Translations under genes and position numbers: made by a program
Shown here: positions 15,035 through 20,995 of the stretch, piece by piece
Position numbering within the stretch: the first letter of the stretch is position 1
Layout: each line of letters begins with the position of its first letter
The notes under the pieces: model-generated
Seen by the model: the letters and a program-made list of their open reading frames with translations, nothing else
The model's database searches: none
What the model was told of the DNA's origin: nothing
Assembly (NCBI GenBank): GCA_014376785.1
Contig: JACMQW010000030.1
Span: 1 to 37,500 of the forward strand
DNA length: 37,500 bases
Source of the DNA: Oligoflexia bacterium
Lineage (GTDB): Bacteria > Bdellovibrionota > UBA1018
Direction: 5' to 3'

Positions 15035-16927
15035 ATGGCTTTTGATTACGATAAGATCAAACATCATCGCGATAGTGGCGAATCATTTTGGACGGCATAC
15101 TCCGATTTGTTCTCCGTTCTTTCTGCGATTTTTCTACTACTTTATGTGGTGTCTAGCGTTCGCAGCGGAACGTTTAGCATTCAGAAAGAAGTTCAGTACC
15201 AAGTGCTCGCGAAAGAAGCGCAGGATTTGAAAGATCAAATTCGAATTTACAATGCGCTCAGGGACGAAACGGTAGAGCAGTCCTCGGATGATGAGCAAAA
15301 GCAATACAAGATGCTCATGGACAAGTTGTCCTTGCTCCAAGAAGAGTCAAACGGCGAGAAAAAGGACCTGATCGAAAAATCCCGTCAATTAGCCCAGAAG
15401 GAAATGGCGCTAAACAAGTATCAGCAAATGATTCGAAATATCGTGAATGTGAACATGCTTTCGAAGCGCCAGATCAAACAGCGAGACTTCTTGATTGCTA
15501 AGAAAGATTTCGACATCACTGAAAAAGATGGCGAAATTCGCGGACTCAATACGGACATCGAAAAGAAAGAAAAAGTCATCGAAGAAAATAACGAGCGAAT
15601 CGCTTCGATCCAAGATCGGCTCGCGGATCAGATTAAACGCGTTCGGATTGAGCAAAAAAGCTCGCGTCTGACTAAAGATGCGATGAATAAGAAAATCGCA
15701 AATCTGCAGCAGTCGAGCGAACAACAGATCAATGCGATCGAAGGCAAAAATGCTTCCATTGCCCGTGACTTGCAAATGGCAAAGACCTCGTTGTCACTGA
15801 CCCAAAATGCTTTGGAAAATACGCAAGGAAAGCTCCAAACAACGGTTGGCCAACTTGAGAACGTGAAAGAGCAAAGTGCGGCGGAAAAGCAGTCTTTGCT
15901 TGGAAAAATCAGCCAAGTACAGGCCCAGTCGGATTCCGAACGAAATGCGCTCATGGGTAAGATGCAAAATATGCAGGGTAAGTCTGCGGCTGAGAAGCAA
16001 GCATTACTCGGGCAATTGGAAGGCGCTAAGCAAGGATTCCAAAAACAGTTGAACGACCTTAAATCCGAGGGTGAAGCTCGAATGGCGTCTGAAAAGGCCG
16101 CATTCGATAAGGCACTGACAGGAGAAAAATTAAGTGGGGCCGCCAAAGCGGCGCGTGAAGCGGCATTTCGGCAAAAAGCGGAAGGCGAAGCAGGCGCTTT
16201 GCGAGGAGCTTTGGCCGGGCTTGGCAACAAGATCGGGGAAGCAGAAAGACAGCTTGCCGACGCTCGTGAAAAAGAAGGTCGGTACGTTGCCTCCGTGGAT
16301 AAACTTGCAAAAGAGAATCAGGGCCTCTCTCAGGACTTGAAACGTGCAAAAGAAGTTGCCGAAGCCAAGAAAAAGCTCGTCCAAAATATTCGGGATAACT
16401 TCAATAAAGCCGGAATCAAAGCCGATGTGGATGACAAAACGGGAGACGTTTTCTTGTCCTTCGGAGACGATTACTTCGAATCCGGCCGAGCTGACTTGAA
16501 AGAGTCCATGCAAAGACGTCTCGAGAAATTTATTCCACAGTATTCGAAGTCGCTCTTTAGCGATCCGAAAACCGCGCAGAATATCGCGAGCGTCGAAATT
16601 ATCGGTTTCGCTTCTTCCACTTACAAGGGAAAATACGTGAACCCGCAATCCCTCAAGACCGAAGACCGGGAAGCCGTCGATTACAACTTAAAGCTCTCGT
16701 TTAATCGCGCTAACTCGATCTTTAAACACATCTTCGATAAGGATCGTCTGCAGTACGATCACCAAAAGGATCTTCTTCCTCTGGTGAAAGTGGTGGGTCG
16801 TGGATACTTGCCAGATGGAAAACAGCCGGGAGACATCCCAAGCGGAATGCCGGAACGTGATTTCTGTAAGAAGTTCAACTGCGCCAAAGCGCAAAAAGTC
16901 ATCATCAAGTTCAACCTGAAAGAATAG
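15035..16927 (+). CDS. MotB/ZorB-like stator protein with a long coiled-coil insertion and C-terminal OmpA-like domain
   Basis: 630 aa, preceded by GGGAG. The N-terminus has the MotB-type plug and TM: W19-T-A-Y-S-D24-L-F-S then a hydrophobic helix to about 42; D24 stands where MotB carries its ion-binding Asp. Residues about 47-455 are charged, mostly Ala/Gln/Lys/Glu, and predicted coiled coil, with an 18-residue tandem repeat at 281-334. The end (about 465-630) looks like an OmpA/MotB peptidoglycan-binding domain: E-S-G-R-A-D-L, V-E-I-I-G-F-A-S, N-L-K-L-S-F-N-R-A; C611 and C616 may form a disulfide. MotB and ZorB have only a short linker between TM and OmpA domain, so the 400-residue coil is unusual. 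It is 22 bp ahead of the MotA-like gene and should form a proton or sodium channel with it. Confidence 0.82.
   Translation: MAFDYDKIKHHRDSGESFWTAYSDLFSVLSAIFLLLYVVSSVRSGTFSIQKEVQYQVLAKEAQDLKDQIRIYNALRDETVEQSSDDEQKQYKMLMDKLSLLQEESNGEKKDLIEKSRQLAQKEMALNKYQQMIRNIVNVNMLSKRQIKQRDFLIAKKDFDITEKDGEIRGLNTDIEKKEKVIEENNERIASIQDRLADQIKRVRIEQKSSRLTKDAMNKKIANLQQSSEQQINAIEGKNASIARDLQMAKTSLSLTQNALENTQGKLQTTVGQLENVKEQSAAEKQSLLGKISQVQAQSDSERNALMGKMQNMQGKSAAEKQALLGQLEGAKQGFQKQLNDLKSEGEARMASEKAAFDKALTGEKLSGAAKAAREAAFRQKAEGEAGALRGALAGLGNKIGEAERQLADAREKEGRYVASVDKLAKENQGLSQDLKRAKEVAEAKKKLVQNIRDNFNKAGIKADVDDKTGDVFLSFGDDYFESGRADLKESMQRRLEKFIPQYSKSLFSDPKTAQNIASVEIIGFASSTYKGKYVNPQSLKTEDREAVDYNLKLSFNRANSIFKHIFDKDRLQYDHQKDLLPLVKVVGRGYLPDGKQPGDIPSGMPERDFCKKFNCAKAQKVIIKFNLKE
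15875..16036 (+). repeat. 54-bp (18-residue) tandem repeat, three copies, inside the MotB-like coiled coil
   Basis: Residues 281-298, 299-316 and 317-334 align without gaps. They read S-A-A-E-K-Q-S-L-L-G-K-I, S-D-S-E-R-N-A-L-M-G-K-M and S-A-A-E-K-Q-A-L-L-G-Q-L at their starts. A weaker fourth copy may precede them (V-G-Q-L at 271-274). A period of 18 equals one heptad plus one hendecad. The DNA copies have diverged strongly, so this is an old or selected protein repeat and not a recent duplication. Confidence 0.75.
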
Positions 16928-16949
16928 CGTTTTTTAGGAGGGTTAAGTT

Positions 16950-18077
16950 ATGGATCATGTAGGTTTAGTCGAAGCAGTCGTTTCAAATGTTGCCGGAATT
17001 GCAAAAGTATTGCTTTTACCGACACTCATCGTAATTTTCATGGGCGGATTTGCTTTGCGAATCTTGGTGTATTACACCGTGAAACGAAATGAATGGTTTG
17101 CGCGTGAATTTGAAAAGCGCATGAACAAATTTATCGAAAGCGATCATCCGGAAAACAAGATTTCTTTTTACGTCACCGTCAAGAAGCTGATGGAGAAAAC
17201 GTATTATGAACTCTTCGAAGTCCGCGCGATCATGCGCCGCCGGAAGCTTGATTACGTGATGGCTCCAGCTGACCGTCTCTTTCTTTTACAAGCGGGGTCT
17301 GCCTTCTTGGTGAAGGATACCTTACGGCAAATTCGCTTCTTAAGATACGGCGGCGAAAGACCCCGTTTCGTTGAAATTTCGAAAACCGTGTTTCAAAACA
17401 ATCCTTGTTTTAACCGCGTGTTCGGGATTCTGCCGGCCGCTCCCGTGAACGACATGTTGAATGTTCTCCCGAGCATTTTCATCATCGGCGGGATCTTTGG
17501 TACCTTCATGGGAATCATGAAAGCACTTCCAGAACTCGGTGGAATGGACTTGGCGAATGCAGAAGCCACGAAGTTAACCATGGGCGCGTTCTTGACCCGG
17601 TTGTCTTTCTCGATGGCGACTTCGATTGTGGGAATTTTTCTCTCGGTGGTGATGACCATTATTAACACCTTCTTGAACCCAGAGCGGATCTTCATGGAAG
17701 TGGTAAATCGGTTCGAATATTCACTCGAATTTCTCTGGCAGCGTTGCGACAGCAATATGATTCCGGACAACATCGCAAACTTCGACGAAAATCGCGATGC
17801 GATCGAAGCTCTGGCTGAGTATTCAGTGGATCAAGAGATTGCAAAGCACCATGAGAAAGTTGCTAAAGCAGGTGACACCAAGCCGGTTTCGGATGCAGTC
17901 CACCAGACCGCTCAGGCGATGCTCATGAACCGGATGGCTGTGCAGCAGCAAGCTCAGCAACAAAGCCAGGCGATTCAACAGGCGCAGAGCCGAGTTGCAC
18001 CGCCCCAAGCAACTTTCCAACAACCGCCAATGCCGCCCGCTCCTAAAAAGACGGATGGCAATGGGGAAGCAGCGTAA
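16950..18077 (+). CDS. MotA/TolQ/ExbB-family proton-channel subunit (ZorA-like core)
   Basis: 375 aa, behind a strong AGGAGGG. TM1 is at about 19-41. A basic cytoplasmic segment with I-M-R-R-R-K-L follows. TM2 (about 171-192) contains L-P-S-I-F-I-I-G-G-I-F-G-T-F-M-G-I, the G-I-x-G-T-F-x-G signature of MotA/TolQ/ZorA channels, and TM3 (about 213-241) contains L-S-F-S-M-A-T-S-I-V-G. The C-terminus (about 320-375) is Gln/Pro-rich and probably disordered, unlike the long helical tail of Zorya ZorA. It lies between the MotB-like and FHA genes, all on one strand, and should surround a dimer of the MotB-like protein. Whether it turns a motor, energises an outer-membrane process or senses the envelope is unknown. 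Confidence 0.88.
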   Translation: MDHVGLVEAVVSNVAGIAKVLLLPTLIVIFMGGFALRILVYYTVKRNEWFAREFEKRMNKFIESDHPENKISFYVTVKKLMEKTYYELFEVRAIMRRRKLDYVMAPADRLFLLQAGSAFLVKDTLRQIRFLRYGGERPRFVEISKTVFQNNPCFNRVFGILPAAPVNDMLNVLPSIFIIGGIFGTFMGIMKALPELGGMDLANAEATKLTMGAFLTRLSFSMATSIVGIFLSVVMTIINTFLNPERIFMEVVNRFEYSLEFLWQRCDSNMIPDNIANFDENRDAIEALAEYSVDQEIAKHHEKVAKAGDTKPVSDAVHQTAQAMLMNRMAVQQQAQQQSQAIQQAQSRVAPPQATFQQPPMPPAPKKTDGNGEAA

Positions 18078-18121
18078 TTCAAGTTCAACAGTGGTTTCAG
18101 CTTTAAACGTCTAAGGGAGTT

Positions 18122-20995
18122 ATGTCGGAGAAATCCTCTTCGAAGAGAATCAAACTGATGGTTGAAGGAGGTCCGACCCGGGAATTTTCCGGCGGTCGGA
18201 CCTTCGTCATCGGTCGTTCTCAGAACGCAGATTTCAGTATTCCTCACCCGAATCTGAGCCGCGAACACGTACGCATGAGCCTAAAGGATGGCGAAGTGTG
18301 GATGGAGGATCTCGGCTCGGCAAACGGCACGTTCGTGCAGGGACAGAAAATTCCGCCGAATTCAGTCGTTAAGATTAAGCCGCACTACCGAGTGCTGCTC
18401 GGAACAGGAAGTAACGTCGTCATGTCGTTCGCGGTCGTAGAAGACCACGGTACGCTGGCAGATGCATCGCCGAAGGGTGATGCCGATCTTCTTGCCGCGT
18501 CCGCACCGAAAGCTCCCGTAACTCAGGTTGACCGTGAAGCAACTCGTGCGCCCGCGGCCCCGATTGTGAATCGAGAAGCAACTCGGACCTCGGTCACTCG
18601 ATCGAAGATGGAACTCGATTTTCCAAAAGAACATTTTCCAGTTGAAGCGAAAAAGGAAAAGGCCGCCGAACTTCGTATTATCGAGGCGAAGAAGCAAAGA
18701 GTTATCGAGGACATTCAGTACAAAGAACGTGAAGTCGACGACCTTCGCGCAAAGATTCGAGAACTTCGCGAAGAATCAGTGAAGTTAAACGAGACCATCG
18801 AAGTTTGTCGCCGCGAGACCCAACCCTTAGCCGATCGTAAAGCCGACTTAGAAAATCGGGTGGCTGAACTGGATGTCATTTACGAAGAAAAAATTGATAC
18901 CTTAGAATCTGGTTTTAAAGACCTTAAGCAGACGCTTGAAGAGTCGCATGCAGTTCGAATGGCGCGGGCCGATCGCGAATTCAAAGAAAAAGTTCGAACC
19001 CAGGATGAGTATTACGCAAACCAGCTCAACCAGCTGGATAACGAAACTCAAGCGGTTCGCGAAGAGGGAGAACGCATCCGCGACGCTCTCACTCTTGAAA
19101 AGAAAGAATACGAAGAGAAACTTAAAAAGGTTCGGAACGATGCTGAAGTTCTCGAAGCGGACCGTCGTCTCACTCAAGTCCGAGTAGATACGGAGATCGC
19201 GCAACTCCAAGGCACGAAGATGAAGCTCGAAAATGAGCTTGAATCGCTGAAGCGTGAAAAAGATAAATTTGCCGTAGAAACACAGGCGACCATCGACATC
19301 GGTCGGACGGAGCGTGCGCGATTAGATGAAGTCAGACGCGAAGTCGAGTTCGCGGCGGCTGACCGAGACAGATTCCAGCGAGATCTGGAAAATCTGAAAC
19401 TCAGCGAAGCAAAAGACATTGAGCGCGTGGAGGCACTTAAAGCAGAAGTTATCCGCTTGGAAACTCGTTCGCAAGGAATCGAAAATGCGCTAGAGAAGGC
19501 TCGTCTTGACGCAGATAGCATTCGACTTACCGCCCGCCAGGAGGCGGACGCAATCCATCAGGCCGCTCGTGAGCAAATAGAGGCAGAGCGGGTAGCCGTG
19601 CGAAAGAATGTCGAATCCGAAGTTCAAGCACGTATTCTGGCGGTAGAGTCCCAAGTGGTTCTTCGCGTTCAGACCATCGATGCGGAGGTTGCGGCAAAAC
19701 GCGCGGCTGTCGATGCCGGAGTTCTAGCCGTATCAGAGCAAGCCCAGGCCTCGGTGAAAGTCCTGAATGAAAATGCCGAGCGGGTGGCTTCAGAAAAAAT
19801 CGACGCGGCAGCTCGGCTTGCCAATGCGACGTTAGAGGCAGCGCAAATTGAATCTTCTCACCTCGTCGAGACTGCGCGTGTTGAGTCCGCACGGATCAGC
19901 GAGTCCGCTTTAGCCAGCGCGCAGACCGCTGCGGCGAAATTAGAAGCGGACGCGAATGCCTATTACGAATCAAAGAGAATCGCGGCGGAAGCGCTCGTTT
20001 CCGGAACTCAGGGACAGGCAGATGCAAGACGCCGAACCGCTGAATCAGAATTGATGGAAATGAGAAAGCGCACGGAGGTCGAAATGCGGCAGGTTCGCGC
20101 AAACGCCCTTGCTGACATCGAAGCGGCTAAAGACCGTGAGATGAAAGAAGTTGCTGCTCGTCTGAAGGGCCGTATTAAAGACATCTCAAGCCAGCTCGAG
20201 CGAATTCTGGGTTCTAAACTTGCCGGCCAGTACGGTGTGACGATGGACGCCGTTTCTGTAAAAAGTTTCGGAGAAGAAATTCATCAGGTGGTTGCGAACG
20301 TGATTGGTCCGTCGAAAAGCAGTGGGAATACCTCCGTCGAAAATACGTTGGGGAGTGTTTTGCCTGTAAACACCGACGCACAAGAGCGCGCAGTCCTTTA
20401 TTGGAAGAAAGTCGGGATCGCGGCAACTGTCCTTATTGCGCTCGGTCTGGGCAAGGTTTTAGCGCCCGATTTTTATACGATGGTTGGGCATCGGGTCGCA
20501 GGCATATTAGAAGTGAAAGACAATACGGATCTCGTGGTGAAGCGGCTGATCAGAGAAAGACAACTCGCGATGACTTTCGTCACAGAGTTAGATCAACATT
20601 ATCGAGAGAACTACACGGATAACGTCCTCTATACGGAGGGCTTTATCGAAATGAAGGATGAAAACGAGTCGCAGAAAGTCTGGACGCTCGCGCTGAATAA
20701 ATTTTTCCAAGGAGAGCTAGGGCTTACTGAAAAAGCCATCGTGCAGTTCGGCTCCGCGGAAGGCCGAATGATTCGTGAACTCATCGATCTGCGTAAAAAT
20801 ATTATCCCGGTCCAATCGGAGGCCGGCATTCAAAAAATGCGCGAAACCGAGGCCTCATTCGTCAAAGAAATGAAATTCATTGTACGCACGGACGCAAACT
20901 GGCAGCGCTTCCAAACCTTCCACCGAGATTTCTACACAAAATACACGCAGACGTTTTTGAACAGAGCGCCCGCTGACGCAGCTAGTACCCCCTAA
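18122..20995 (+). CDS. FHA-domain giant coiled-coil membrane protein
   Basis: 957 aa, SD AAGGGAG. The N-terminal FHA domain (about 10-105) keeps the phosphothreonine-binding residues: G-R (31-32), L-S-R-E-H (45-49), N-G-T (68-70). A linker at 130-160 carries two R-E-A-T-R motifs (T141, T154). Residues about 175-700 are predicted coiled coil, charged first and very Ala-rich after about 470. One TM helix (about 764-781, V-G-I-A-A-T-V-L-I-A-L-G-L) follows, then about 175 helical residues that should be periplasmic if the FHA domain is cytoplasmic. No kinase, phosphatase or SMC ATPase motif was found. It is third in the MotB-like/MotA-like cluster; I infer that it links that channel to Ser/Thr phosphorylation signals. 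Family name not recognised. Confidence 0.85.
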   Translation: MSEKSSSKRIKLMVEGGPTREFSGGRTFVIGRSQNADFSIPHPNLSREHVRMSLKDGEVWMEDLGSANGTFVQGQKIPPNSVVKIKPHYRVLLGTGSNVVMSFAVVEDHGTLADASPKGDADLLAASAPKAPVTQVDREATRAPAAPIVNREATRTSVTRSKMELDFPKEHFPVEAKKEKAAELRIIEAKKQRVIEDIQYKEREVDDLRAKIRELREESVKLNETIEVCRRETQPLADRKADLENRVAELDVIYEEKIDTLESGFKDLKQTLEESHAVRMARADREFKEKVRTQDEYYANQLNQLDNETQAVREEGERIRDALTLEKKEYEEKLKKVRNDAEVLEADRRLTQVRVDTEIAQLQGTKMKLENELESLKREKDKFAVETQATIDIGRTERARLDEVRREVEFAAADRDRFQRDLENLKLSEAKDIERVEALKAEVIRLETRSQGIENALEKARLDADSIRLTARQEADAIHQAAREQIEAERVAVRKNVESEVQARILAVESQVVLRVQTIDAEVAAKRAAVDAGVLAVSEQAQASVKVLNENAERVASEKIDAAARLANATLEAAQIESSHLVETARVESARISESALASAQTAAAKLEADANAYYESKRIAAEALVSGTQGQADARRRTAESELMEMRKRTEVEMRQVRANALADIEAAKDREMKEVAARLKGRIKDISSQLERILGSKLAGQYGVTMDAVSVKSFGEEIHQVVANVIGPSKSSGNTSVENTLGSVLPVNTDAQERAVLYWKKVGIAATVLIALGLGKVLAPDFYTMVGHRVAGILEVKDNTDLVVKRLIRERQLAMTFVTELDQHYRENYTDNVLYTEGFIEMKDENESQKVWTLALNKFFQGELGLTEKAIVQFGSAEGRMIRELIDLRKNIIPVQSEAGIQKMRETEASFVKEMKFIVRTDANWQRFQTFHRDFYTKYTQTFLNRAPADAASTP

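What the first reader, a model, noticed from the sequence alone, without database searches (positions are those of the whole stretch)
15035..20995. Three-gene ion-channel, coiled-coil and FHA system without a known name
A MotB/ZorB-like protein (plug, TM, 400-residue coil, OmpA-like domain), a MotA/TolQ/ZorA-like channel subunit and a 957-aa FHA/coiled-coil/TM protein are consecutive on one strand with strong SDs. MotA/MotB-type pairs convert ion flow into motion or conformational work, and FHA domains read phosphothreonine. The combination suggests a wall-anchored, ion-driven machine gated by Ser/Thr phosphorylation. It lacks flagellar partners, TolR/TolA/TolB/Pal, and ZorC/D/E of Zorya defence. 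The long cytoplasmic arm that ZorA carries itself could here be supplied by the FHA protein. Roles in gliding, prey entry, envelope work or phage defence remain open.
Basis: partly seen in the sequence, partly recalled or inferred. Interest (0 to 1): 0.85.

Follow-up and report, generated by a model that had tools for sequence, protein, structure and literature searches.

The report
Phylum-wide Zorya-like motor with phospho-reader
The three neighbouring genes encode a membrane ion-driven motor related to the engine of the Zorya antiviral system plus a phosphothreonine-reading coiled-coil partner; the set recurs across the predatory-bacteria phylum, including the model predator Bdellovibrio, where I found no study of it as a motor.

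Summary
The three ORFs lie at the stated coordinates, and the trio is conserved. In 58 non-redundant loci from the phylum (Bdellovibrionota), the MotB-like gene directly precedes the MotA-like gene in 57. A gene with FHA, coil, TM and a new periplasmic domain follows directly in 39. Across 369 genomes, 128 of 132 with the new domain also have the MotA-like gene. Bd1167 was published as a 'crescentin-like' gene repressed at prey entry.

By profile and fold the channel pair belongs with ZorA/ZorB, not MotAB or TolQR. It is not Zorya defence: no effectors, no long ZorA tail, no plasmid or phage copies. It is not flagellar: three genomes carry it without FliG.

New features: a nearly proline-free 270-457-residue periplasmic coil on the B subunit, an all-helical domain without a solved fold, and a basic-small-small A-subunit C-terminus (61/61 versus 6% background). 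Some branches carry a cNMP-binding protein instead of the FHA protein. Mechanism and function are inferred. The trio is absent from B. exovorus and H. marinus, so predation does not require it.

The parts
15035..16927 (+). B-subunit gene (MotB/ZorB-like, 630 aa)
15086..15142 (+). B-subunit transmembrane helix (res 18-36) with invariant ion-path Asp24 (codon 15104-15106)
   Evidence: hydropathy; invariant in 49 sequences; ZorB D24 in PMC11890865
15173..16369 (+). proline-free ~400-residue periplasmic coil of the B subunit (res ~47-445); res 87-154 strongly conserved
16370..16924 (+). OmpA-like peptidoglycan-binding domain of ZorB type (Y550-N551-x-x-L554-S555-x-x-R558; S527; invariant Cys611/Cys616)
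16950..18077 (+). A-subunit gene (ZorA/TolQ-like, 375 aa, 3 TM)
17025..17672 (+). span of the three TM helices of the A subunit (res ~26-44, 172-190, 207-241); Thr185 and Ser225 invariant = ZorA T147 and S184
18066..18077 (+). A-subunit C-terminus Glu-Ala-Ala-stop, member of the conserved small-small-COOH tail (Lys/Arg before it in most relatives)
18122..20995 (+). FHA/coiled-coil/TM/periplasmic-domain partner gene (957 aa)
18206..18403 (+). FHA domain (res 29-94); phosphothreonine-pocket residues R32, S46, H49, N68 present
18668..20311 (+). cytoplasmic coiled coil (res ~183-730), no proline between 235 and 730
20393..20449 (+). single TM of the FHA protein (res 758-776), Lys-rich on the N-terminal side
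20450..20992 (+). all-helical periplasmic domain ('FC', res 777-957) with no Pfam, PDB-sequence or PDB-fold match

Best explanation
The locus is a three-part ion-driven motor module of the ZorAB branch, carried chromosomally by about half of the Bdellovibrionota genomes searched. Shown by sequence or model: a three-TM A subunit with the ZorA ion-ring residues; a B subunit with the TM aspartate, a very long proline-poor coil and a ZorB-type peptidoglycan-binding domain; and a third protein with an FHA domain, a long coil, one TM and a conserved helical domain predicted to face the periplasm. Inferred: five A subunits turn around a B dimer as H+ or Na+ passes Asp24. The B dimer grips the cell wall through its long coil, which at 40-69 nm if straight is longer than a periplasm is wide, so it must lie along the wall or fold back. 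The third protein docks on the A5B2 core through its TM and periplasmic domain, and its FHA head ties the motor to a phosphothreonine-carrying protein in the cytoplasm, recruiting or unplugging it. The A-subunit tail marks the motor for regulated removal, perhaps by ClpXP with an adaptor.
For: Gene trio conserved: B directly upstream of A in 57/58 loci, FHA+FC protein directly downstream in 39, FC-only 3, split 1. Phylum co-occurrence of FC domain and A subunit: both 128, FC only 4, A only 52, neither 185 of 369 genomes. A-subunit profile hits only ZorA among PDB sequences (best 4.8e-9), and Thr185/Ser225 align with ZorA T147/S184; model pLDDT 87 matches ZorA first, TolQ next. B profile hits ZorB PG domain (2e-10) and ZorB TM (4.5e-5). 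B coil 270-457 aa with 7 prolines in ~17,600 residues of 51 sequences. FHA pocket residues kept: R 42/45, S 43/45, N 38/45; own genome has 3 Ser/Thr kinases. Tail 61/61 vs 6.2% of 792 background ORFs, encoded by all alanine codons and five of six serine codons, with all three stops, and present where no partner gene follows. Present in nearly complete genomes lacking FliG (G307, G309). HD100 locus at 1107724-1112616; Bd1167, 'coiled-coil crescentin like', down-regulated in predation (PMC2797640).
Against: No complex was modelled; 5:2 stoichiometry, ion flow, the FHA binding partner and the side of the membrane on which the FC domain lies are untested. FHA is not recognisable in some members, so phospho-input is not universal. 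The A subunit is absent from B. exovorus JSS, H. marinus SJ and one complete genome of the HD100 genus, so it is not required for predation. The HD100 gene numbers were assigned by counting ORFs back from the L,D-transpeptidase taken to be Bd1176. A single microarray statement supports the attack-phase timing. The Tn-seq paper's main text shows no motor-type hit at this locus; its tables were not available.
Confidence: 0.55

Rival explanations
1. A divergent Zorya phage-defence system in which the FHA/FC protein replaces ZorC/D/E or the ZorA tail.
For: A and B subunits are closest to ZorA/ZorB by profile and fold.
Against: No nuclease or helicase effector next to the genes in the window or in HD100, where neighbours include SMC, FtsY and an L,D-transpeptidase; no copies found on 72,556 plasmids, 50,697 phage records or viral contigs; distribution is phylum-wide and clustered by lineage; no enzymatic domain found in the third gene.
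Confidence: 0.1
2. An auxiliary flagellar stator.
For: MotB plug and OmpA-like domain; FliG is present in 334/369 genomes.
Against: G307 and G309 (97-99% complete) and G301 (74%) have the A subunit and FC gene but no FliG match; the A-subunit profile does not match MotA structures at E<=1; HD100's known motAB stators are counted as three other pairs (PMC11323537).
Confidence: 0.05
3. A cytoskeletal or cell-shape module: long coils scaffold the envelope, and ion flow is a minor or lost function.
For: Two exceptionally long, nearly proline-free coils, one on each side of the membrane; Bd1167 was described as crescentin-like.
Against: Invariant Asp24, Thr185 and Ser225 argue for retained ion conduction; the part of the FHA protein before the TM varies from ~280 to ~1190 residues, which is odd for a lattice.
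Confidence: 0.15
4. A gliding or adhesion motor analogous to AglRQS-GltG, with the FHA/FC protein playing the GltG part.
For: GltG is also FHA + TM + periplasmic domain and is reported to interact with the A subunit AglR (PMC3169522).
Against: GltG ends in a TonB domain, the FC domain does not; Bd0828-0838 with AglRQS-like genes is already the candidate gliding engine in Bdellovibrio.
Confidence: 0.15

Closest known systems
ZorA/ZorB of Zorya types I and II
   Same: Three-TM A subunit with matching Thr/Ser ring; B subunit with TM Asp and ZorB-type peptidoglycan-binding motif; adjacent genes
   Different: No long structured ZorA tail, but a short, partly disordered one ending in two small residues; ~400-aa coil in B; gene order B then A; third protein FHA/coil/TM/FC; no ZorC/D/E
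AglRQS with GltG (myxobacterial gliding)
   Same: Ion-driven A subunit partnered with an FHA-TM-periplasmic protein
   Different: There the B subunits are TolR/ExbD-like and GltG ends in TonB; here B is MotB/ZorB-like and the partner ends in the FC domain
MotAB flagellar stator
   Same: B subunit with plug, TM Asp and OmpA-like domain
   Different: A subunit profile does not match MotA; locus occurs in genomes without FliG; B has a long coil
TolQR/ExbBD
   Same: Second-best fold of the A subunit
   Different: B subunit is not TolR/ExbD type; no TolA, TolB, Pal or TonB gene seen beside it

Membership tests
Ion-driven A/B motor superfamily | Invariant Asp in the B transmembrane helix and polar Thr/Ser ring in A | tested here: met
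   Asp24 invariant in 49 B sequences; Thr185 and Ser225 invariant in 58 A sequences, aligned to ZorA T147/S184
Ion-driven A/B motor superfamily | 5:2 assembly and ion conduction | not testable with these tools
   No complex prediction or wet experiment
Zorya defence system | ZorA/ZorB homologous channel pair | tested here: met
Zorya defence system | Long structured cytoplasmic tail on ZorA | tested here: not met
   A subunit 282-375 aa in the loci read; window model has ~130 residues after TM3, the last ~25 with low confidence
Zorya defence system | ZorC/ZorD or ZorE effector next to ZorAB | tested here: not met
   Neighbours in window and HD100 are other genes; third gene has no PADLOC match
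Zorya defence system | Anti-phage activity | not testable with these tools
   Needs infection assays
Flagellar MotAB stator | MotA-type A subunit and a flagellar rotor partner | tested here: not met
   No MotA structure matched by profile; trio present in FliG-less genomes
TolQR/ExbBD | ExbD/TolR-type B subunit | tested here: not met
   B matches MotB_plug and ZorB, no TolR/ExbD family
FHA phosphothreonine-binding domain | Conserved Arg, Ser and Asn of the pThr pocket | tested here: met
   Pfam E 5e-14; R32, S46, N68 conserved
GltG family | C-terminal TonB domain after FHA and TM | tested here: not met
   No TonB hit; FC domain has no Pfam family
ClpXP C-terminal degron | Tail-dependent degradation in vivo | not testable with these tools
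   Tail resembles known degron classes (own knowledge); the own-genome tmRNA tag ends AMAA, sharing only the last residues

The most novel reading that the evidence does not exclude
ZorAB-type motors are not primarily a defence invention: Bdellovibrionota keep a lineage-wide, non-defence ZorAB motor with exchangeable signal inputs (FHA or cyclic-nucleotide reader), a ~50 nm periplasmic arm, and an A subunit carrying a conserved C-terminal destruction tag so that the motor can be removed when the cell changes life phase.
Probability: 0.35. Interest if true: 0.85.

Novelty: new variant of a known kind. Interest (0 to 1): 0.7.

Why it matters
It would add a new class to the small set of ion-driven rotary machines (flagellar, Ton, Tol, gliding, type 9, Zorya), with signal-reading partner genes and an extreme periplasmic coil. 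It would also offer a non-defence relative from which Zorya could be understood. Because a copy sits in the tractable predator B. bacteriovorus HD100, the role can be tested directly.

Tried and rejected
1) A degenerate FHA in the divergently transcribed gene upstream of the branch lacking FHA (L043-L048): its N-terminus looked FHA-like by eye, but profile comparison gave 5% probability; it carries ankyrin repeats. Not claimed as a partner. 2) C-terminal tail as a by-product of overlap with the next gene: rejected, since gaps are often 10-50 bp, the tail persists with no partner gene following, and many synonymous codons occur. 3) Matching lengths of the B coil and the FHA protein: Spearman 0.31, p 0.07, not supported. 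4) Trio as a requirement for predation or prey entry: rejected, A subunit absent from B. exovorus and H. marinus. 5) Fold of the FC domain: confident model (pLDDT 84) but no PDB match. 7) Papers: no study of this trio as a motor was found.

Full report
Observation. The three ORFs are at the stated positions and on one strand, with Shine-Dalgarno stretches before each start. The first carries a MotB plug/TM and a C-terminal domain best recognised by a ZorB profile; the second is a weak MotA_ExbB member best recognised by ZorA profiles; the third has a clear FHA domain followed by a long coil, one TM and about 180 further residues.

Conservation. A search of close relatives found the A subunit in 22 of 58 genomes, with the B gene beside it in the loci read. 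A phylum-wide search found it in 180 of 369 genomes. I fetched loci across the phylum and tabulated neighbours. In 58 non-redundant loci, B lies directly upstream of A in 57, usually within 30 bp. The next gene is FHA plus the C-terminal 'FC' domain in 39, FC without recognisable FHA in 3, FHA only in 1, FHA and FC on separate genes in 1, and a cyclic-nucleotide-binding-domain protein in 4; 10 have none of these. The FC domain occurs in 132 genomes, 128 of which also have the A subunit. The A-subunit tree groups by family well above chance but not perfectly, so some transfer within the phylum is likely.

Named organisms. Loci close to the window come from MAGs labelled Oligoflexia and Bdellovibrionales, and one more distant locus from Bacteriovorax sp. 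BSW11_IV. G190 is a single contig of 3,782,950 bp, which I know to be the length of B. bacteriovorus HD100. Its trio is at 1107724-1109313, 1109326-1110231 and 1110232-1112616. Counting ORFs back from the L,D-transpeptidase (sequence, taken to be Bd1176) makes them Bd1167, Bd1168 and Bd1169; this mapping is an inference. The HD100 predation microarray paper describes Bd1167 as a coiled-coil, crescentin-like gene down-regulated on the shift from attack phase to predation (PMC2797640), which fits. The first lacks both subunits; the second lacks the A subunit, keeping only a protein with a B-like C-terminal domain.

Family. Profiles of the A subunit match only ZorA among PDB sequences at meaningful E-values, with Thr185 and Ser225 on ZorA T147 and S184. 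Its model (pLDDT 87) has ZorA as best fold match and TolQ next. The B profile matches ZorB's peptidoglycan-binding domain and its TM. Asp24 is invariant, matching the critical Asp24 of type I ZorB (PMC11890865). The Y/F-N-x-x-L-S-x-x-R motif is kept, and two cysteines near the C-terminus are invariant. Zorya membership fails on the ZorA tail and on effectors. Flagellar membership fails: G307, G309 and G301 have the trio and no FliG.

Unusual features. First, the B coil is 270-457 residues (473 in one proline-containing outlier) with 7 prolines in about 17,600 residues over 51 sequences. As a straight helix that is 40-69 nm, more than a periplasm's width; residues 87-154 are conserved well beyond a generic coil. 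Second, the FHA protein's coil is also nearly proline-free (0.15%) and ranges widely in length, while the part after the TM is held at 153-198 residues. Third, that FC part has no Pfam family, no credible PDB sequence relative and no PDB fold match, although modelled with confidence. Fourth, the A subunit ends in two small residues in 61/61 cases against 6.2% of 792 neighbouring ORFs, with Lys or Arg before them in 45/61; the preceding linker is not conserved and many synonymous codons are used. These 61 are related sequences, so the count is not a probability. Three of four cNMP-type partners end the same way (KKAA, KKAS, KKAA). A protease tag is my preferred reading. The tmRNA tags of these genomes end in LAA or MAA, so the similarity to the local ClpXP signal is partial, and a binding motif for another protein is possible.

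Mechanism (inferred). The A5B2 core should use ion flow past Asp24 to turn A around B. B is fixed to peptidoglycan at the end of its coil. The FHA/FC protein, Lys-rich before its TM and so FHA-inside, would dock on the core and tie it to a phosphorylated partner. Replacement of the FHA gene by a cNMP-binding protein in another branch suggests a motor core with exchangeable inputs. Attack-phase expression plus a possible removal tag suggests envelope work in free-swimming cells that is shut down on prey entry. Confidence is fair for the motor module and low for the cellular role.

Limits. No complex modelling, no wet data, supplementary tables not readable, other phyla not searched with profiles.

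Noticed in passing
L050:8839-9729 and neighbours; L051, L115, L116: A divergent branch of the same A/B pair is followed by a small cyclic-nucleotide-binding-domain protein instead of the FHA protein; three of the four partners end in KKAA/KKAS like the A subunits.
   Followed up: partly
L043, L044, L046, L047, L048, upstream of the B gene: In a branch of the window's family lacking the FHA gene, a divergently transcribed TM protein with C-terminal ankyrin repeats lies next to the B gene.
   Followed up: partly
L144:5702-7216; L145:6097-7587: Halobacteriovorax-type genomes carry a protein with a signal-peptide-like start whose C-terminal domain matches the B subunit's peptidoglycan-binding domain, with no A subunit beside it: possibly a motor-less derivative.
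   Followed up: partly
L036:3724-5465: The B gene of this genome is split into two overlapping frames, a frameshift or assembly error.
   Followed up: no
L109:8104-14633: FHA and FC domains are on separate genes here, with a second FHA-like gene between.
   Followed up: no
window:12621-14860: Directly upstream and divergent: a PAS-domain histidine kinase and an RF-1-domain (ArfB-like) gene; both recur near the trio in a same-genus genome (L033) but not in more distant relatives.
   Followed up: partly
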